Below are positions 36-22,499 of a stretch of 23,844 nucleotides of DNA, piece after piece. Both the position numbers and the translations under genes were made by a program. Source of the DNA: a virus; the IMG/VR virus record IMGVR_UViG_3300017751_000235, positions 1 to 23,844 of that record; one strand, written 5' to 3'. Each line of letters starts with the position of its first letter. The first letter of the stretch is position 1. Under the pieces are notes generated by a model, which had not been told where the DNA came from, ran no database searches, and saw nothing but the letters and a program-made list of their open reading frames with translations.

Positions 36-121
36 GCTACTGTGGTGGAATTGGTAGACACGAGGGACTTAAAATCCCTTGAACAGTAATGTTCGTGCGA
101 GTTCGATTCTCGCCAGTAGTA
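36..121 (+). tRNA. tRNA-Leu (anticodon UAA)
   Basis: Full cloverleaf with the long variable arm typical of type II tRNAs. The 7-bp acceptor stem pairs 36-42 with 114-120 (one G-U at the end), and A121 is the discriminator. The anticodon stem is 63-67/75-79 and the 7-nt loop places TAA at 70-72. The variable arm has a GAAC/GTTC stem, and the T arm carries GTTCGATTC. No CCA is encoded, so the host or phage must add it. It reads UUA, the dominant Leu codon in the genes downstream, so it probably supports translation of this AT-rich genome. Confidence 0.95.
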
Positions 122-129
122 CAACTTAC

Positions 130-203
130 GGACTCGTAGCTCAATTGGATAGAGCACCTCCCTTCTAAGGAGGCGGTTATAGGTTCGATTCCTATCGGGT
201 TCA
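130..203 (+). tRNA. tRNA-Arg (anticodon UCU)
   Basis: A 74-nt cloverleaf. The acceptor stem pairs 130-136 with 196-202 (two G-U pairs) and A203 is the discriminator. The anticodon stem CCTCC/GGAGG (157-161/169-173) is strong and places TCT at 164-166. The T arm contains GGTTCGATTCC, and CCA is not encoded. It lies 8 nt after the Leu tRNA and 5 nt before the next tRNA, so the three are almost certainly one transcript. It reads AGA, which is nearly the only Arg codon used in the neighbouring phage genes. Confidence 0.95.
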
Positions 204-208
204 CTTAA

Positions 209-282
209 GGACTCTTAGCTCAGTTGGTTAGAGCACTTCACTCATAATGAATAGGTCATAGGTTCGAGTCCTATAGGGTCCA
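209..282 (+). tRNA. tRNA with CAU anticodon (elongator Met or Ile2)
   Basis: A 74-nt cloverleaf. The acceptor stem pairs 209-215 with 275-281 and A282 is the discriminator. The anticodon stem 236-240/248-252 has one mismatch at its outer pair, and the loop places CAT at 243-245. The D-arm and anticodon-loop wording resembles bacterial elongator tRNA-Met. The same CAU anticodon is also used by Ile2 tRNAs, in which lysidine modification switches reading to AUA, a common codon here. It lacks the three G-C anticodon-stem pairs of an initiator. Sequence alone does not settle Met versus Ile2. Confidence 0.9.
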
Positions 283-354
283 CCTTCTCTTCAAAATAGC
301 TTGGATTGCTAGTATTTATTACATATGTTTATACTTTAAAACTAAATTACTAGA
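283..354 (+). promoter_or_regulatory. AT-rich leader between tRNAs and first CDS, possible promoter
   Basis: It has TTG at 301-303 and TATGTTTA at 324-331, with 20 nt between them, a loose fit to the Bacteroidetes TTTG / TAnnTTTG promoter. TATTTATTAC at 313-322 resembles the TATTTATAA boxes but differs at one core base. Either could start transcription of the 355 operon. Confidence 0.25.
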
Positions 355-11205: not shown

Positions 11206-14200
11206 ATGGCAAAGAAAAATAACCCTTATAAAAATTATTCTAAACCTTTATCACCCCCAGTGATAGAGGTTAGTTCTAATATTGAAATAGGAAATATTAA
11301 TGTTAGTGCATCAACAAGATCTGTGCCTGTGTCAACCATCACAACAGAAGGATTTGAGTTTTCTAATTCACAAATAATTCCTGCTGAAATAATTAAAGGT
11401 ACTTTTGCTCCCCAAGATCCAAGTTCTTCTATTGAACTTTTTATTTATGATATTAATAAAAACATCATTGTAGAAAATTATAATTATGAAGGATGGGAAA
11501 TAACAGAGAATACTATCCCCCCAGTTGTACCAACAACATTTACGGATTCTGAAGGAATACAACAACAAGAAAACTCTACTGGATCCTTACCAACAAGCCT
11601 AGTACAAGTTAACCCTGCTGGAGATGCTTATGATTTAGGGGTAGATAGTGGAGAAATTTATACATTATATAATTTTCTTACTAATGAGTTAGGTTCCTCA
11701 AATAATAATACTTTTTATATAGCAGAAATATCTGGGGATAGAACTGAAGTTAGGTTAAAATCTAATACTATTAATAATTCTAAAATTATAGAAGGGTATG
11801 GACAATTAAAAAATAAATTAGCTTCAACAAGATATTTTGATGAATTTTATATTAACTTTTTTAATAATATTTACTCTGTAGGTATTAATTGTCTTTTAGA
11901 TGAAAACCCAAATGAGGGAATTTCTATTTTAATTAAAACTTTTTCTCCTATACCTGCTAATAGTAATGTAGGGGATAGTGTATATGTTGTTACTAAACAA
12001 AGTGAAACCTTAGCCTGGTCTGTAGATTTTTATGAAGATTTTTCTGATTTATTAGATAATGCTACTTATATTAAAGGACCTAATATTAATATTTCTTTAC
12101 AAGATTTAGTTAACAATTCTACCACTTTAAAATCACAAACAGATTTATTAAACACCCCCTCTTCAGAATCTTTAGATTCTGTATTAAATTATCTAAACCA
12201 AACAGGTGTAACAATTACACCTAATTATTCATATAATACTTTTAATGAATTTATTAACTTTTCTTCTGCTAAAGAAAGAATAAATAATTTTTATGAAAAA
12301 GTTTCACAAATTCAAGCATATCAAGCTGATATTGATATTATTGTAACAACCACAGGATCAAACCCTAATGTTAGTGCTATTTCTCAAAGTTTAGCTAGTT
12401 TACAAACAAATATTTCAAATTTAGTTGAAAATTTTGATGGATACGAAAATTATTTATATTATAATTCCTCATCATTTGCCTACCCTAAAACAGGATCAGC
12501 ATATCCTTATACTTTAATGCCTACTGGTAGTACAGAAGTAATAGAATGGATGGGTAGTGATGATGAAAATTCACAATATTATGGAGGCTACATATTATCA
12601 GCTTCATTATATGATGAAGATAATCAAAATTGGTTATGGTATACTATACCTTCATTCATTACTGAAAATTCTGAAAATGACGAGTATGTTTCATTTTCAA
12701 ACATGGTTGGTCAATCTTTTGATGAGGTTTGGTTATATACTAAAGCATTAAGTGAAAGATATAATACAACAAATAACCCAGATACAGGCTTACCTTTAGA
12801 TCTAGCTGCAGAAGCTATTAAAGGTTTAGGATTTGAAACATTTGGAAATAATTATGATAACCAAGATAATTTTATAGGTTTAATAGGTGAAGATAATGGT
12901 ACTTATGTACCCCCAACAGGTAGTGAATTAATTACTCAATACATAGCGGTTAATGGAGGTCAAATTCTTAATTATTGGGATATTGGATATTCATGGGATG
13001 ATTATGTTGAACAAATTTTAGACCCAGGATTTCCTTATGCTATAGATAAAGTAAGTAAAGAAATTTATAAACGTCTTTACCATAATATGGCTTACCTTAC
13101 TAAGAAAAAAGGTACAATTAGTGGTTTAAGACAGTTAATTAATATTTGGGGTATTCCAAATACTATTCTTCGAATTAATGAATTTGGAGGTAAAAATAGA
13201 GACAACACAGATGACTATGATTTATGGTATAAACGTTATAGTTACGCGTATACTCCAGTAGGTAATTCATACGCAGCAAGCTCATCGGTTAAAGTGCCTT
13301 GGATGCCATTACAACGTAATCGTGTAGCAGATAATGAATATATAGTACCAGATGGTATTGCCCTTAGGTTTAAAACTATTGGTCACCCATCTTCAAGTTT
13401 TGGAGGTTCTTATTACAGCCAATCAATAGCGGTTAAAAAATCAAACGGAACTGCAGATAATAAATTTGATTGGGGTATTAGTTTATTTTACGAAGATCAA
13501 CCCTCAGGTACATATTCTGGATCTAGTTTTAGTGATTATTATGATTATGGTAAGTTAAGATTTTATTTATCTGGCTCTACATCAGAAGGAGGAGTAGCAA
13601 TATCAGATGATATTGAATTACCATTCTTTGATGGAGGTTGGTGGACAGTATTATTACAAAGAAATACTCACGTTAGTGCTAGTGATCCTTCTCAATCAGC
13701 AACATATACTTTATTTGCTGCTAATAAATTAGATAATGGGTGGGATGGAAATTCAATTGGGTGGACAGGTTCGGTTAGTTTAAGTTCACAAGCACCTGAT
13801 TTCTTTGAAGGTTATGATGGTGGGTTTTATGAATCTGTTACTTATGATTTATCAAATCCTCCATCATCTTCATTAAATGACTCTTGGAATAAATTTGGAG
13901 TAACAGAACACGATGGTGTTTATGTTGGTGGTTACATATCAGGTTCTAATGTAGGAGTTAATGTATTAAATGAGGGAGGTAAAATATTCTCAGGATCTTT
14001 TCAAGAATTTAGATATTACTCGAATGATATTGAAAAAACTGTATTCAATGATTTTGTAATGAATCCTGAAAGTATTGAAGGTAATAACATTACAGGCTCA
14101 GAATCATCGTTTGATATTGTAAACTTTAGAGCACCATTAGGTAATGAATTAGAACACGTATTTACAGCATCAGCATTAACAGGCTATATAGAAGAAATAT

Positions 14201-17200
14201 CCTCTTCTCACCCTGCAATAACAGGATCAGCCCCTGTTTATATAGTAACACAATCTTTTGTAAACCCAGCAGATATATCATTAACATCAAGTTATGAATT
14301 TATTCATTATGAGTCTACAGTTAAAAGAACATATAGTAAAACAAACGTTGAAACATATTTCTTAGATCAACCTTCTATCGGAATTAGAAACAGGGTATCA
14401 AATAAAATACAAGTTGAAGATGGGGAAGTATACGGTAATGTATTATCAAAATACAGAAGTATTCAACAAAATTATTTAATTAGTGAAAGCTATACTGAAG
14501 ATATTTCAAGTTTAGAAGTTGGTTTTTCACCTCAAGATGAAGTAAATGATGATATAATTGCATCTTTTGGTTATGGTGTAATATCAGATACACTTGCAGA
14601 TCCAAGATTTGCTTTTAGTGGCAGTCAAACATATTACCCTAAATTAAGATCAATTGCAAATGATTACTTTAAAAAATATACAGAAGGAAATGTTTGGGAT
14701 TATTTAAGGTTAATTAAATACTTTGATAATTCAATATTTAAAGCCATTAAATCATATGTTCCAGCACGTACTAGTGTTACTACAGGTATTATAGTTAAAC
14801 AACATATGCTTGAACGTAATAGACGTGTTCCCATAACAGTTGATCCTAATACAATAATAGCATACACCCCAGAAGAAGAAATTGTAGTTGGAGGTCAACC
14901 TACACTTTCCGGTATGAATAGTCCAATTTCATATAGAAATTTGGAAATTACAGGAAGTATGGATATAGGTACTATAGAAGGTGGTACAGGAGGTGTTTTA
15001 GATATTTACAATGGAGAAGTAACACAGTCTGGTTGGTTTTATGGTAACACACAATTAGCTTATTCATCATTACTTCCTGGATCTTATCAAAACTTAGCGA
15101 CAGCTTTTGGTGCTTATAATAGCGTAAACGGTATTGAAATATCAAATTTTGGTTCAGGAACTGATAATAAAGGGATTAGATTAACAACTCCTTTAAAAAC
15201 AAGATTCCAATTCATGGCATCTGTTGATTCAGATTTTCTTTTACCAAATACTGGATTTCAGTTTTTAGTATCTTCATCACTTAGGGGTGAAATTGGATCG
15301 GATATAATATCCTCTGCTTCTTTATCTCCACTACCTACTACAATAGCAACTTCATCTTTCTATGAAATGCTTCCCGAAGAAGATATTTCTTTTTGGATAC
15401 GAGGTGTAAATAATGTAGGTGATCCTACTATTACTAAAATAAGAAATTTATTAGTCCAACCATACACAGAGGATATTGAAGTTATCAGTTTTCAATCCAC
15501 CCTATTAAACCCATATGTAACTCAATCTTGGATTGAAAGAGATAACACAATATCAGGTAGTGCTTTTAGAATACATAAATCACAAGAAGAATTTTATAAT
15601 GGTGAATTTAGTGGTAGTAATTTAACAGTTACAACTCAATCATTACTAGATAACCCATTCGCACCTTCACAAGTTTTAGATACTAGTTATGTGGTAGATG
15701 TATCTCAGAGTAGGGGAGCCTTTTCTTCTGATATAGGAGCGATTAACACTTATCCATCATTTTCATTACATACAAATGTTTTTGCATATCCAGCTGGATT
15801 GGCAGCTTCGGATATCCTTGATAATAATATAAAAGATTGGTTAACTTATGTATCAAGTTTACCACTACAAGAAAAATTTAGTAAAGCAGCTATATTCTTA
15901 CAACAATCTCAAATTGATTTTCAGAATTTTTTCATTTACAGTATATTATTACCTCCTTTAGCTTATAGAATAAATGATGAATCATTAGCAACAGTATCAG
16001 ATGAACCAAGAGATTTATTTGGGTTTAATAGTGCTAATCAATATCTAGGAGGAATTACAGATTATCCTTTACCACCAGTATCAGCAAGTGGATTTGATGG
16101 AGGACTTTATGCTAGTACAGCCGCTACTCCAGCATATGAATATAATAATATAGGTCCTTATTTTAAATTTGATATTTCAGGTTCAGGATTTATTACTAAC
16201 CCAACATTAGATTTTGCTAATTCAGGGTTAGCTGGTGGATTAGAAAGTAATATTATACTTTCCTCTTTATTAGGAAGTAGAGAATCTATAACCCTTCAAA
16301 ACAGAAGTGCGGGTGTTGATTTTAATTTCCTCGAATATAGAATGCCTAATGGTTCAACTAATGGTCAAAGACCTGTAAGATTTACTAGTACTGTAAATGT
16401 ATCAGCATCCCTTAATGTAGTAGATGCTGTTACAATGTCAATTTATGTATCTAATAATGATTTAACTTATAATGCCCCTGATACAACCTCAACAAAATTT
16501 GGAAATGGTGGTTGGTTAACAACCCAACAAAATAAAGCTTATGGGTTTGGGTATGGAAGTGGTAGTTTACTTATCCAAGGTACAACTTGGTCTGGATCTT
16601 CAGGTGATAGTGGTTATTGGGTTCCTTATGGTTTACTTTTTAATAGAAAGAATTATGATCAATTTGGAAATCTTATCGATAATCAAAATACTATAGCCAA
16701 TCTTCCTGATTTTGATTTTAGTCTTACAAATACACCAAGCTTAGGATTCCCAGCAGTAGAAGATTATAGTGGTTTACCTGGTAATTTATTTAGACAAAGT
16801 CTAAATAGTGTAGAGGGTGTAATTTCTATTAATGAAAAAATTAATACAGAATTTAAATCTATAGGATATTCTTATGATCCTAATAATTCAAGATTATTAA
16901 GTGGCTCAGTAACTCCTTTATGGCTGCCTAGTGGACCACAATCTTTACAATATGTGAATTTTAACCCACAATTACCCCCATTTGAAGATTTTTATAATAC
17001 TCCATTTAATGCATTAATTAATAATGTTACTCAAAGTAGACCAAATACTTATTTACAAGTAGTAGAGTATGAAGGAGGTTCATCAACAGGTTCATCAGGA
17101 GTACCTTCAAATGTTATACCTATCCAAAATAATAAAGCTATAAAGGCAGATATTCCTGATAGTTTTTACACTCAAAAATCATCAATCATTCCTAGATATT

Positions 17201-19287
17201 TAGGAAGTAGATTACAAAGTGCAAATTATAATACATTTACCCCTTCAGGAAGTCAAATTGAATATTTAAATGGATATCTTAGTGGAAGTTTATTTTCAGG
17301 ATCAAACCAAATTGGTCTTCAAGAAACTTGTTTTACAGCTGGAACACAAATAACTACTATGGTTTATAGTTCTAACAATAAAATATATAATAATACTAAA
17401 AATATAGAAGATGTAAAAGTTGGTGAAGCTATAGCAACATACAATGAAGATAGTGGAAAATTTGAAAGTGGGTTAGTAGGAGACTTAAAAATAAGTGAAG
17501 TAGAATCTATTATTAAATTAACATTTGATGATGGGAATGTTATTAATACTACATCTAAACACCCATTTTATGTTGAAGGAAAAAATTGGGTTATAGCTGC
17601 TGATTTAACTGTAGGTGATGTTTGTAAAACTAGTTATAACACTCAAACAACTATATCATTAATAGAAACAATAAATGAAACTACTACTGTATACAATTTA
17701 TTAAGTGTAGAACCTAACCATAATTTTTATGCTAATAATGTATTAGTTCATAATAAAAGTATAACTGATGTAGTAAGCCCTGGTTGGAATGGAGATAGCT
17801 CAAGAGGTACTATGAAGTCTGTAAATTCATCTGTAGGAACAATTTCTAAACATCCTATTTATTTTGCTCATTTTAAAACATCAAAACAAAATGAAGAGTT
17901 ATATGATACTTATACTTTTAGAGTTGATACACTTATTGAATGCCCGTTAGAAGATGTAACAGGAAATAAAGCCCCTCAATCCCCAGTAACTATAAAAATT
18001 GATGGTAGTAATGATAATTTAACGGATATTAGAAGTACTTTTGAAGTTGATAGAAAAGCATTAATAGCATATAATCAAGGTAAAGTTAAAAAATCAGGAT
18101 CGGTAGCTATTAATTATACTTCTTTACCAATAGGTAGTAATAAAATATATCAAGGAGGTTTAGAATATCAAGTAAAAGGAACAAGTCAAATTACTCCAAC
18201 AACCTATGCTCTTACTATGAGTTATAATAGTTCACTTTGGGCAGAACTCCAGGGAGTAATACCGGGTGTAAATATTGAGTCTCCTACTACATCATCCTAC
18301 TATTTAAGGGATGCGGCATTTCTTAATACACAAGGTTATCCTTCAGGTTCAGCTTTTAATTTTTTAACATCTAGTATAGAACCTGCTTTATATATAAGAG
18401 GAGGGGAAGGATATATTTCTTCTAGTGCTGGGATGGTAAATGGGGTTAATATCCAAGGACATTTACTTGGAATTGGAAATGGACTTAGTTTAGTAAATAA
18501 CTATAATAATTATGTTTCTAGAAGTATATTTTCAACAGGATCGTTTAATCAATTTAATAATGCCCCACTTCCTGGATTGCCTAATGTCCAAACTGCTACT
18601 TCTCTAAATCAAAGACTACCAGAAAATTATGCATCTAATATTGCAAATTATTTTACTCAAAATTATAATCTTTCAGGTATAGATACAAACATAGACTCAG
18701 GAAGTTTAGGAGGAATTACAACTTATGAAGATTTTAGCCAACCCACACACTTCCAAAAAGGGGATGAAATTAGAGTTATTTATAATTCAAATCCAAACTC
18801 CACTGAAACACCTAACTTTGTTACTCAAGATTTTACTATAGTAGATGATAGTCCTAATACAGATTATGAAAATAATATTGATGTTCCTGATGGTGAAGGA
18901 AATTTAATTTCTTCATCTGTTTGGACAATAAGCTCAGACGCATTTACCTTCTTTAAATTATACCCAGTTACACAATCACGGTTTAATTACGATAAACTAA
19001 TAGTTAACCCTGATCCAAGAACACTCGATTTACCAATTCCAGATGGAAAAATATATGGTTTTACACTTAGAAAAAGAATTCAAGCAGATGATAGAATAAT
19101 TGTTTATCAAGAAGCACCAACAGGATCAGAAGGAGTCAAAACAATATCACCTTCAGGGTATTTAATTCCTGATGATTTTTCAGATCAACAGAAAAGAAAC
19201 GTACAATCTATAATAAATAATTTAAGTGCTAAAAATGTATTTAGAGCTGATGAAGATAATGATACTAGAAGAGCACCTGAAGATTAG
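11206..19287 (+). CDS. Giant 2693-aa baseplate/tail protein carrying an internal Hint domain
   Basis: Modular virion protein. Residues 1-590 are beta/helical with no recognised family. About 594-665 (WDDYVEQILDPGFPYAIDKV, KRLYHNMAYLTKKKGTISGL, INIWGIPNTILRINEFGG) match a tail-protein-I/gp7-like baseplate patch. About 714-960 look like a LamG-type lectin fold (ALRFKTIG, GWWTVLLQRN, FQEFRYYS). About 1050-1205 hold a second conserved tail patch (LEVGFSPQDEVNDDIIASFG, YDN-type KYFDNSIFKAIKSYVPARTS, VKQHMLERNRR). Long beta-rich Ser/Gly/Asn regions follow. A 142-aa Hint domain occupies 2042-2183, then a 510-aa C-terminal part with YFAHFKTSK and FTLRKRIQADDRIIVYQE. T4 gp7 is about 1032 aa, so this is a large expansion or fusion. 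It starts at ATG 11206 after GAGGAAAAA, one of the few SD-like leaders here. Confidence 0.85.
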   Translation: MAKKNNPYKNYSKPLSPPVIEVSSNIEIGNINVSASTRSVPVSTITTEGFEFSNSQIIPAEIIKGTFAPQDPSSSIELFIYDINKNIIVENYNYEGWEITENTIPPVVPTTFTDSEGIQQQENSTGSLPTSLVQVNPAGDAYDLGVDSGEIYTLYNFLTNELGSSNNNTFYIAEISGDRTEVRLKSNTINNSKIIEGYGQLKNKLASTRYFDEFYINFFNNIYSVGINCLLDENPNEGISILIKTFSPIPANSNVGDSVYVVTKQSETLAWSVDFYEDFSDLLDNATYIKGPNINISLQDLVNNSTTLKSQTDLLNTPSSESLDSVLNYLNQTGVTITPNYSYNTFNEFINFSSAKERINNFYEKVSQIQAYQADIDIIVTTTGSNPNVSAISQSLASLQTNISNLVENFDGYENYLYYNSSSFAYPKTGSAYPYTLMPTGSTEVIEWMGSDDENSQYYGGYILSASLYDEDNQNWLWYTIPSFITENSENDEYVSFSNMVGQSFDEVWLYTKALSERYNTTNNPDTGLPLDLAAEAIKGLGFETFGNNYDNQDNFIGLIGEDNGTYVPPTGSELITQYIAVNGGQILNYWDIGYSWDDYVEQILDPGFPYAIDKVSKEIYKRLYHNMAYLTKKKGTISGLRQLINIWGIPNTILRINEFGGKNRDNTDDYDLWYKRYSYAYTPVGNSYAASSSVKVPWMPLQRNRVADNEYIVPDGIALRFKTIGHPSSSFGGSYYSQSIAVKKSNGTADNKFDWGISLFYEDQPSGTYSGSSFSDYYDYGKLRFYLSGSTSEGGVAISDDIELPFFDGGWWTVLLQRNTHVSASDPSQSATYTLFAANKLDNGWDGNSIGWTGSVSLSSQAPDFFEGYDGGFYESVTYDLSNPPSSSLNDSWNKFGVTEHDGVYVGGYISGSNVGVNVLNEGGKIFSGSFQEFRYYSNDIEKTVFNDFVMNPESIEGNNITGSESSFDIVNFRAPLGNELEHVFTASALTGYIEEISSSHPAITGSAPVYIVTQSFVNPADISLTSSYEFIHYESTVKRTYSKTNVETYFLDQPSIGIRNRVSNKIQVEDGEVYGNVLSKYRSIQQNYLISESYTEDISSLEVGFSPQDEVNDDIIASFGYGVISDTLADPRFAFSGSQTYYPKLRSIANDYFKKYTEGNVWDYLRLIKYFDNSIFKAIKSYVPARTSVTTGIIVKQHMLERNRRVPITVDPNTIIAYTPEEEIVVGGQPTLSGMNSPISYRNLEITGSMDIGTIEGGTGGVLDIYNGEVTQSGWFYGNTQLAYSSLLPGSYQNLATAFGAYNSVNGIEISNFGSGTDNKGIRLTTPLKTRFQFMASVDSDFLLPNTGFQFLVSSSLRGEIGSDIISSASLSPLPTTIATSSFYEMLPEEDISFWIRGVNNVGDPTITKIRNLLVQPYTEDIEVISFQSTLLNPYVTQSWIERDNTISGSAFRIHKSQEEFYNGEFSGSNLTVTTQSLLDNPFAPSQVLDTSYVVDVSQSRGAFSSDIGAINTYPSFSLHTNVFAYPAGLAASDILDNNIKDWLTYVSSLPLQEKFSKAAIFLQQSQIDFQNFFIYSILLPPLAYRINDESLATVSDEPRDLFGFNSANQYLGGITDYPLPPVSASGFDGGLYASTAATPAYEYNNIGPYFKFDISGSGFITNPTLDFANSGLAGGLESNIILSSLLGSRESITLQNRSAGVDFNFLEYRMPNGSTNGQRPVRFTSTVNVSASLNVVDAVTMSIYVSNNDLTYNAPDTTSTKFGNGGWLTTQQNKAYGFGYGSGSLLIQGTTWSGSSGDSGYWVPYGLLFNRKNYDQFGNLIDNQNTIANLPDFDFSLTNTPSLGFPAVEDYSGLPGNLFRQSLNSVEGVISINEKINTEFKSIGYSYDPNNSRLLSGSVTPLWLPSGPQSLQYVNFNPQLPPFEDFYNTPFNALINNVTQSRPNTYLQVVEYEGGSSTGSSGVPSNVIPIQNNKAIKADIPDSFYTQKSSIIPRYLGSRLQSANYNTFTPSGSQIEYLNGYLSGSLFSGSNQIGLQETCFTAGTQITTMVYSSNNKIYNNTKNIEDVKVGEAIATYNEDSGKFESGLVGDLKISEVESIIKLTFDDGNVINTTSKHPFYVEGKNWVIAADLTVGDVCKTSYNTQTTISLIETINETTTVYNLLSVEPNHNFYANNVLVHNKSITDVVSPGWNGDSSRGTMKSVNSSVGTISKHPIYFAHFKTSKQNEELYDTYTFRVDTLIECPLEDVTGNKAPQSPVTIKIDGSNDNLTDIRSTFEVDRKALIAYNQGKVKKSGSVAINYTSLPIGSNKIYQGGLEYQVKGTSQITPTTYALTMSYNSSLWAELQGVIPGVNIESPTTSSYYLRDAAFLNTQGYPSGSAFNFLTSSIEPALYIRGGEGYISSSAGMVNGVNIQGHLLGIGNGLSLVNNYNNYVSRSIFSTGSFNQFNNAPLPGLPNVQTATSLNQRLPENYASNIANYFTQNYNLSGIDTNIDSGSLGGITTYEDFSQPTHFQKGDEIRVIYNSNPNSTETPNFVTQDFTIVDDSPNTDYENNIDVPDGEGNLISSSVWTISSDAFTFFKLYPVTQSRFNYDKLIVNPDPRTLDLPIPDGKIYGFTLRKRIQADDRIIVYQEAPTGSEGVKTISPSGYLIPDDFSDQQKRNVQSIINNLSAKNVFRADEDNDTRRAPED
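17329..17754 (+). other. Hint (intein-like) domain inside the giant tail protein
   Basis: Residues 2042-2183 form a minimal Hint fold with no homing-endonuclease insert. Block A starts at C2042 (CFTAGTQITTM). A NIEDVKVGEAIATYNEDSGK segment follows, then block B with T-x-x-H in NTTSKHPFYVEGKNWVIAAD and LTVGD. Block F is TVYNLLSVEPNHNFYANNVL, and block G ends VLVHN (H2182, N2183). The next residue is K2184, not Cys, Ser or Thr. Canonical splicing needs that nucleophile, so cleavage at one or both junctions is the expected activity, as in bacterial intein-like and polymorphic-toxin Hint domains. Codon use equals the surrounding gene. Confidence 0.85.
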
Positions 19288-21096: not shown

Positions 21097-22053
21097 ATGA
21101 GTGCTTGGAAACAATTCACAACCAAAGATGTTACAATAACATCATTTATAGCAGATAAAGGATTCTCTTTTACGGGAGGGGCTATTACTGGATCTGAAAA
21201 TGGGATCAATATTTACTGTGGTAGAAATGTCCATTATACATCATCTGCAAACCTCCAAACTGGATTTGAATATTCATCATCTAGAAATTCAGTATATAAT
21301 AGCGCTAAACAACTTTATTATAAAAATTACTTATCTTCAAGTATAGGAGATTTTGCTAATACAGGGAGTATAGTACCTGGTGTAACTCGAGAAGATGATG
21401 TTTTACAAGGTCCTATAAATGGTACTTTATATGATAATTATCTTCAATCAACTTTACTTCAACAAAGATATTTCCCAACTGGAAGTGGGAATGAAATAAC
21501 TACTATATCAATACCAACTTATTTATATGGAGAAAAAATAATCCCATATACTTTTGAATTTACTTATACAGGATCTGTTCTTGTAAATAACGGTGCTCCT
21601 CTTTTCCTATCAGATGATGGAGATGGTAACATTATTAGTGGTTCAGATAGTACAGTAGTAGGTCAAATATTTTATTCTCATGGTATTGCAGTTTTTACTA
21701 CCCACAGTTGTGAAAAATTAGGAAATTTAATTCAATTTAATCCTAATTCACTAAACCAAACACATATTAATTTTAGTTCATCACTTACTATATATGAACA
21801 ACAATATAAATGTACAATAGCTGAAAATGAATTTGGATCTTCAACCAATCCAACATTATTAACCCAATCAATAGAAGGAGCTGCTAATGATTCTTACTAC
21901 CCTTATGCAACAGCTTCATTTTTTGAACCTTACATAACTTGTGTGGGTTTATATAACGGGGCTAAAGAATTAGTAGCTGTAGGAAAATTATCATTTCCTC
22001 TACCAGTTTCACAATTCACCGATACCACTGTTATAGTAAATTTCGACGTATGA
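21097..22053 (+). CDS. Virion structural protein, 318 aa (paralogue B of a tandem pair)
   Basis: Begins MSAWKQFTTKDVTITSFIAD and is beta-rich, with many Ser/Tyr/Asn. Its end (EPYITCVGLYNGAKELVAVG, then KLSFPLP...VIVNFDV) aligns with the end of the preceding protein, marking a shared C-terminal module. The rest differs strongly, so the pair may bind each other or different partners through variable N-terminal parts. The start follows TAATGA directly after the preceding stop, and the end overlaps the nuclease gene by 4 nt (ATGA). Confidence 0.75.
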   Translation: MSAWKQFTTKDVTITSFIADKGFSFTGGAITGSENGINIYCGRNVHYTSSANLQTGFEYSSSRNSVYNSAKQLYYKNYLSSSIGDFANTGSIVPGVTREDDVLQGPINGTLYDNYLQSTLLQQRYFPTGSGNEITTISIPTYLYGEKIIPYTFEFTYTGSVLVNNGAPLFLSDDGDGNIISGSDSTVVGQIFYSHGIAVFTTHSCEKLGNLIQFNPNSLNQTHINFSSSLTIYEQQYKCTIAENEFGSSTNPTLLTQSIEGAANDSYYPYATASFFEPYITCVGLYNGAKELVAVGKLSFPLPVSQFTDTTVIVNFDV

Positions 22054-22499
22054 TAAATTGGCAATATCAAGAGCAAGATATTACAGACATCTCTCAATTT
22101 CCTGATGATACTTATGGGTTTGTTTATAAAATAACTCATTTACCTACAGGAAAATCTTATATAGGTAAAAAAATTCTATATTTTACTAGAAAAGTAAAAA
22201 TGGGAAAAAAAGACTTAAAACAATATGAAGGTGTTGTAGGACGTAGACCCTCTTATAAATTAGCAATTAAAGAATCCGATTGGAAAGGATATTGGGGTTC
22301 AAATAAAGAACTAATAGAATTAGTTAAAACAGAACCTGAAGAAAATTGGGAAAAATGGATTATTAAAACTTGTCCTACCAAAAAATTGTTAACATATTAC
22401 GAAACAAAATATTTATTCATTTATCAAACCCTAGAAAAACCCGATGAGTTTTGGAATGATAATATTTTAGGAAAGTTTTTTACTAAGGATTTCAACTAA
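22050..22499 (+). CDS. GIY-YIG-family endonuclease
   Basis: A 149-aa protein with a GIY-YIG catalytic layout: Y26 in GFVYKIT, YIG at 37-39 (KSYIGKK), R47 ten residues after Y37, E118 in TYYETKYLF, and N136/N138 in FWNDNILGKF. The Y-to-R spacing matches I-TevI. A Trp-rich stretch at 78-103 (DWKGYWGSNKELIELVK) is typical of Seg/Hef-like phage nucleases. There is no separate DNA-binding domain, so specificity is unclear. It is translationally coupled to the last tail gene by an ATGA overlap, with the primase following after 38 nt. It may be a free-standing homing endonuclease or a nuclease used in host DNA breakdown or repair. The family call is firm, the biological role open. Confidence 0.85.
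   Translation: MINWQYQEQDITDISQFPDDTYGFVYKITHLPTGKSYIGKKILYFTRKVKMGKKDLKQYEGVVGRRPSYKLAIKESDWKGYWGSNKELIELVKTEPEENWEKWIIKTCPTKKLLTYYETKYLFIYQTLEKPDEFWNDNILGKFFTKDFN

What the first reader, a model, noticed from the sequence alone, without database searches (positions are those of the whole stretch)
17329..17754. Hint domain in a phage tail protein that cannot splice normally: possible autoproteolytic tail maturation
Seen: residues 2042-2183 of the giant gene have Cys1, the T-x-x-H block B, an HNF...VHN end, and no endonuclease insert. The next residue is Lys, not Cys/Ser/Thr. Known: Asn cyclisation (needs the His-Asn pair present here) and N-S acyl shift (needs Cys1, present) can each cleave without the +1 nucleophile, as in intein-like and toxin-type Hint domains. 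Inference: the 2693-aa protein may be cut into about 2041 and 510 residues, with or without loss of the 142-aa Hint. Conserved-looking structural sequence lies on both sides (IPRYLGSRLQSANYNTF before, YFAHFKTSK after), so the domain sits inside an ordinary tail region. Self-cleavage in an assembling baseplate would be an unusual timing or release step.
Basis: partly seen in the sequence, partly recalled or inferred. Interest (0 to 1): 0.75.

Follow-up and report, generated by a model that had tools for sequence, protein, structure and literature searches.

The report
Self-cutting domain in phage tail protein
A marine-type phage carries, inside a very long tail protein, an intact intein-like self-processing domain of the sort that usually cuts its host protein rather than splicing it cleanly, and it belongs to a large, apparently undescribed phage family in which the residue after the cut site is almost always lysine or arginine.

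Summary
Confirmed. Residues 2042-2183 of the 2693-aa ORF (window 11206-19287) form a complete, endonuclease-free Hint domain: Cys1, block B TxxH, terminal His-Asn, then Lys. Sequence, predicted structure (pLDDT 94) and fold comparison put it in the Hint superfamily, closest to A-type bacterial intein-like (BIL) domains (2lwy, 6y75/6tmm), slightly above true inteins. Three relatives of the tail protein (L003, L112, L247) carry the same Hint at the same point, all with +1 Lys. Many other relatives lack it, with flanks that join cleanly (L092, L045), so the Hint is an insertion in a length-variable loop. In the wider phage family 65 of 70 non-redundant Hints have Lys or Arg at +1 and none Cys/Ser/Thr; many end the protein as ...VHNK-stop, some in tandem arrays. 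Most likely the domain cuts the tail protein into about 2041 and 510 residues, with or without minor religation; whether virions contain cut protein is untested. The C-terminal part is structural, not a toxin. New here: phage virion setting, basic +1 rule, array architecture.

The parts
11206..19287 (+). Giant tail/baseplate-region ORF, 2693 aa, host of the Hint domain
   Evidence: synteny with immuto phage baseplate cluster; residues 36-664 and 1075-1219 align to immuto gene 161 (E 2e-72)
17308..17784 (+). Whole insertion relative to Hint-less homologue L092 (residues 2035-2193): 5' linker QIGLQET, Hint, Lys, 3' linker SITDVVSPG
   Evidence: alignment of 16 homologues; junction listing
17329..17754 (+). 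Hint domain, residues 2042-2183, A-type BIL-like
17329..17331 (+). Cys1 (C2042), N-S acyl shift nucleophile
   Evidence: Cys in all four tail-loop members and all 70 family Hints
17551..17562 (+). Block B T2116..H2119 (TSKH)
   Evidence: T in 65/66, H in 66/66
17695..17697 (+). Block F:4 position, Asn2164 (VYNL) where most +1-Cys/Ser/Thr inteins of the comparison have Asp
17749..17754 (+). Penultimate His2182 and terminal Asn2183 (Asn cyclisation)
17755..17757 (+). +1 Lys2184
   Evidence: Lys in window, L003, L112, L247
17308..17328 (+). Variable 5' linker, absent from Hint-less homologues
17758..17784 (+). Variable 3' linker, absent from Hint-less homologues
17785..19284 (+). C-terminal structural region after the Hint (residues 2194-2693), conserved in Hint-less homologues, so not a toxin cargo

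Best explanation
The element is an A-type bacterial intein-like (BIL) domain inserted in a length-tolerant loop of a giant phage tail protein. Mechanism inferred from the known chemistry of the class: Cys2042 takes over the acyl group of Thr2041 (N-S acyl shift); Asn2183 cyclises and frees Lys2184. With no Cys/Ser/Thr at +1 there is no branched intermediate, so thioester hydrolysis and Asn cyclisation give mainly cleavage into about 2041 and 510 residues, with the 142-aa Hint left on one piece or released; a minority may be rejoined when the amine of Lys2184 attacks the thioester. As the loop tolerates anything from a few to over 100 residues in relatives, the two halves probably stay together non-covalently (inference). 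Shown here: domain, intact catalytic set, class-like fold (predicted), +1 Lys, insertion site, purifying selection. Not shown: any cleavage or religation, or a benefit to the phage.
For: PT-HINT and Intein_splicing above cut-off. AF2 model of residues 2038-2188 pLDDT 94; best folds are BIL domains: 6y75 Z 22.4 and 2lwy Z 21.4, true inteins 20.1 or less, BILs also first in Foldseek and in a profile search of PDB sequences. Cys1, block B, His-Asn kept in all four tail-loop members. dN/dS window vs L003: Hint 0.28, flanks 0.44 and 0.22, linkers about 1.1 on few codons. Empty sites in L092, L045 and others. Class definition and activities from PMC4031507, PMC7664689, PMC7765530, including that BILs sit in variable regions of non-conserved proteins.
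Against: No biochemical evidence at all. The Z-score gap between BILs and inteins (1-2 units) is small. Hint persistence could reflect a structural or neutral role. dN/dS between window and L112 is less clear (Hint 0.61). Some BILs are poorly active in splicing (Magnetospirillum BIL did not splice until +1 was mutated, PMC4031507).
Confidence: 0.68

Rival explanations
1. Catalytically silent Hint: the domain folds and decorates a surface loop but does not cut in the phage; conservation reflects folding or binding.
For: The same loop in L110 carries a 100-odd residue insert that is not a Hint, so the site accepts decorations.
Against: Cys1, TxxH and His-Asn are kept in all four members although flanks are only about 46-53% identical between window and L112; a silent domain need not keep all of them.
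Confidence: 0.17
2. Ligation rather than cutting: the N-terminal thioester is resolved by an amine (Lys2184 side chain or alpha-amine, or a Lys of another virion protein), making a spliced, branched or cross-linked tail protein, as BIL2 of Tetrahymena joins ubiquitin-like domains through a Lys isopeptide.
For: BIL2 is among the two closest solved structures and is reported to form an isopeptide with a Lys (PMC8616854); Lys at +1 dominates the phage family.
Against: Arg, a poor nucleophile, replaces Lys in 16 of 70 family members, so the side-chain amine at +1 is not essential; many family members end at that Lys, leaving no C-extein to join.
Confidence: 0.12
3. Pretoxin-type processing: the Hint releases a C-terminal toxin or effector from the virion protein.
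For: Pfam's best family is PT-HINT, found in polymorphic toxins.
Against: The 510-aa C-terminal region is conserved in Hint-less homologues as part of the same structural protein and matches no toxin family.
Confidence: 0.02
4. A true (class 1) mini-intein that splices normally with an unusual +1 residue.
For: Intein_splicing model matches above cut-off.
Against: +1 Lys lacks a nucleophilic O or S; block F:4 Asp, common in the Hints with +1 Cys/Ser/Thr here (38 of 58), is absent in all 87 Lys/Arg members; site is a variable loop, not a conserved active site.
Confidence: 0.01

Closest known systems
A-type bacterial intein-like (BIL) domains, e.g. Clostridium thermocellum BIL (2lwy)
   Same: Hint fold (Z 21.4, rmsd 1.4 over 134 residues), Cys1, block B TxxH, His-Asn end, no +1 nucleophile, about 140 aa, variable-region location
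   Different: Phage virion protein rather than a bacterial protein; +1 nearly fixed as Lys/Arg across the phage family; activity untested
Tetrahymena BUBL1 BIL2 (6y75, 6tmm)
   Same: Closest fold by VIA-align (Z 22.4, tied with 2lwy within about 1) and top profile match
   Different: BIL2 lies between ubiquitin-like domains and is reported to make Lys isopeptides (PMC8616854); no such partner is known here
PT-HINT (PF07591) of polymorphic toxins
   Same: Best Pfam match, same HN-terminated Hint
   Different: C-terminal part here is a conserved structural region, not a toxin
Phage inteins with the same C-terminal block (loci L017-L044)
   Same: Very similar C-terminal block NHNFYANNILVHN
   Different: They carry Cys or Ser at +1 and mostly Asp at block F:4
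Tail-fibre S74 intramolecular chaperone
   Same: Another self-cleaving module of phage fibres; in L151 a Hint ending VHNK directly precedes an S74-like domain (phrog_6121 E=7.3e-14; Pfam S74 below cut-off)
   Different: Different fold and chemistry; not present in this gene

Membership tests
Hint superfamily | Hint fold | tested here: met
   AF2 pLDDT 94; the 50 rows shown by VIA-align are BILs, inteins and Hedgehog Hint, Z 15 or more
A-type BIL | Nucleophile (Cys) at position 1 and block B TxxH | tested here: met
A-type BIL | C-terminal His-Asn | tested here: met
A-type BIL | No Cys/Ser/Thr required at +1 | tested here: met
   +1 Lys in window and three homologues
A-type BIL | 130-155 aa, no homing endonuclease | tested here: met
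   142 aa; length range as given in PMC9185962
A-type BIL | Located in a variable region of a non-conserved protein | tested here: met
   loop PRY..AHFK varies from 41 to 231 residues among homologues
A-type BIL | Closer to solved BILs than to inteins | tested here: met
   margin small
A-type BIL | Autocleavage, with or without low-level splicing | not testable with these tools
   needs expression or virion proteomics
Class 1 intein | +1 Cys/Ser/Thr | tested here: not met
   +1 Lys
Class 1 intein | Insertion at a conserved functional site of the host protein | tested here: not met
   variable loop
Pretoxin HINT system | C-terminal toxin domain | tested here: not met
   C-terminal region conserved in Hint-less tail proteins; no toxin family match
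Hedgehog-type Hog domain | C-terminal Hint followed by a sterol-recognition region | tested here: not met
   followed by 510 residues homologous to the tail protein of Hint-less phages
Tetrahymena BIL2-type Lys ligation | Isopeptide bond formed with a Lys | not testable with these tools
   Lys at +1 present; chemistry untested

The most novel reading that the evidence does not exclude
Phages use a dedicated subfamily of BIL domains, marked by a basic +1 residue and often strung in tandem or placed at the very C-terminus, as built-in ligases: the thioester they make on a virion protein is captured by a lysine amine, covalently joining or capping structural proteins without an external enzyme; the tail-loop Hint would then rejoin or cross-link the baseplate rather than merely cut it.
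Probability: 0.1. Interest if true: 0.85.

Novelty: new variant of a known kind. Interest (0 to 1): 0.55.

Why it matters
If active, this would be intein-type self-processing built into a phage virion, giving a directly testable maturation step. The wider pattern may matter more: a large phage family of Hint domains whose +1 residue is nearly always Lys or Arg, often as the last residue of the protein or as the whole linker between two Hints. That constraint does not follow from known splicing or cleavage chemistry and can be tested with short constructs.

Tried and rejected
Normal intein splicing: rejected on +1 Lys and the variable-loop site. Pretoxin cargo: rejected because the C-terminal part is conserved in Hint-less homologues. 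Hidden continuation after VHNK-stop in the C-terminal Hints: in L004-L016 the stop is followed by a new gene start, and I saw no long open continuation in another frame that would suggest a frameshift. Structure of the host region (residues 1960-2330) failed, pLDDT 39.8, so the loop's exposure is not shown structurally. A gene split at the Hint point in cultured relatives: immuto phage has a 1265-aa gene for the N-terminal part and a weakly similar 403-aa second gene (E=5e-6 in a single comparison), but that boundary is not at the Hint. One versus several gains of the Hint: the flank tree needs two changes, one origin not excluded. A second Hint in the same contigs as the tail-loop Hints: none found in the L112, L003, L002 or L247 records, which may be fragments. 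Literature on Hint domains in phage tail proteins: none found in the open-access text searched; the original BIL papers of 2003 and 2004 are not held, so what they list at +1 could not be checked.

Full report
Observation. The window is a 23,844-base virus record. ORF 11206-19287 encodes 2693 aa. 17329-17754 is residues 2042-2183, in frame, starting CFTAGT and ending VLVHN, followed by Lys. Pfam gives PT-HINT (E=4.6e-11) and Intein_splicing (E=1.8e-10), both above their cut-offs. The gene neighbourhood is a contractile-tail cluster: the ORF at 7043-8905 matches baseplate wedge families, and order and content match Flavobacterium phage immuto, whose gene 161 aligns to residues 36-664 and 1075-1219 of the giant protein.

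The insertion. Scans with flanks and with a junction alignment found some 50 loci of the same tail protein, with some duplicates. Four kinds of sequence carry a Hint at the same point: the window (with near-identical L002), L003, L112 and L247. The other homologues read across this point do not. In the closest clean empty site, L092 reads TPSGSDIVYLTGELSGSTISGSI-WEGDSNFGTMKS where the window reads TPSGSQIEYLNGYLSGSLFSGSN-QIGLQET-[Hint]-KSITDVVSPG-WNGDSSRGTMKS. The loop between PRY and AHFK runs from 41 to 231 residues across homologues, and in L110 it holds a long non-Hint insert. The linkers on both sides of the Hint differ between the four members, while the Hint itself is conserved. A tree of the flanks (20 rows) needs two changes of Hint presence and does not exclude a single gain. 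Window against L003, dN/dS is 0.28 in the Hint against 0.44 upstream and 0.22 downstream; against L112 it is 0.61 against 0.53 and 0.44.

The domain. A 66-row alignment (its rows chosen to begin with Cys and end in His-Asn) shows block B His in 66 and Thr in 65. The AF2 model has mean pLDDT 94. Nearest folds are Tetrahymena BIL2 6y75 (Z 22.4) and C. thermocellum BIL 2lwy (Z 21.4); the best true intein has Z 20.1. Foldseek and a profile search of PDB sequences also rank BILs first. Reviews define A-type BILs by the His-Asn end and the lack of an obligatory +1 nucleophile, state that they mainly cleave but can splice by attack of the freed amine on the thioester, and that BILs lie in variable regions (PMC4031507, PMC7664689, PMC7765530). 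Every sequence feature of the class that could be tested is met.

The wider family. A scan with the Hint alignment kept the best 80 of 300 confirmed viral loci, with more present. Among 70 non-redundant full-length Hints ending in His-Asn, +1 is Lys in 49 and Arg in 16, and never Cys, Ser or Thr; Lys plus Arg make up 7% of the same proteins. The query ended in that Lys, so a mild bias is possible, but the scan patterns did not include it. In 37 of the 70 the protein stops within three residues after His-Asn, in 27 of them right after the Lys. Others are tandem arrays of two or three Hints with linkers as short as one residue. In a broader set, block F:4 is Asp in 38 of 58 Hints with Cys/Ser/Thr at +1 and in 0 of 87 with Lys or Arg (Fisher p about 1e-20, which also counted two rows without His-Asn). 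F:4 Asp is thus absent where the +1 nucleophile is absent, as expected if its job is tied to that nucleophile (my reading). Why the residue should be basic is unexplained; Arg argues against an obligatory side-chain amine.

Mechanism. Most likely N-terminal thioester plus Asn cyclisation giving cleavage at one or both ends, possibly with some religation. All steps are inferred from the class. The loop's tolerance of length makes it plausible that the cut protein still assembles; the model of that region was too poor to show it.

Verdict. A real, intact, probably active A-type BIL-like domain in a phage tail protein.

Noticed in passing
L188, L169, L166, L153 (positions): Proteins of the kind that begin MKGTxFSADF..R(L/I)xE(I/L)NTDT in L004-L016, with up to three tandem Hint domains at the C-terminus joined by one- or two-residue linkers that begin with Lys or Arg and ending VHNK near the stop; the N-terminal part has no Pfam match.
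   Followed up: partly
L151 and L314: Hint ending VHNK followed by SDIRLKEN/SDARLKRN, which looks like the S74 tail-fibre chaperone (L151: phrog_6121 E=7.3e-14, Pfam S74 below cut-off), so two self-processing modules side by side.
   Followed up: partly
L170, L176, L163 third Hint: Terminal Hint copies that have lost the His-Asn end (VLVSDESDT), probably degenerate.
   Followed up: no
L209-L211 (Nostoc): Cyanobacterial proteins with a related Hint, Lys at +1 followed by a glycine-rich stretch.
   Followed up: no
window 22050-22499: GIY-YIG endonuclease of the SegE type (PF19835 E=2.5e-25) beside the tail genes, a possible homing endonuclease.
   Followed up: no
window 36-284: Three tRNA genes in a row (Leu, Arg, Met) at the start of the record.
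   Followed up: no
L214:12782-13993 (immuto gene 162): Separate gene weakly similar to residues about 1935-2050 of the giant protein, suggesting the giant ORF joins parts that are encoded apart in cultured phages.
   Followed up: partly
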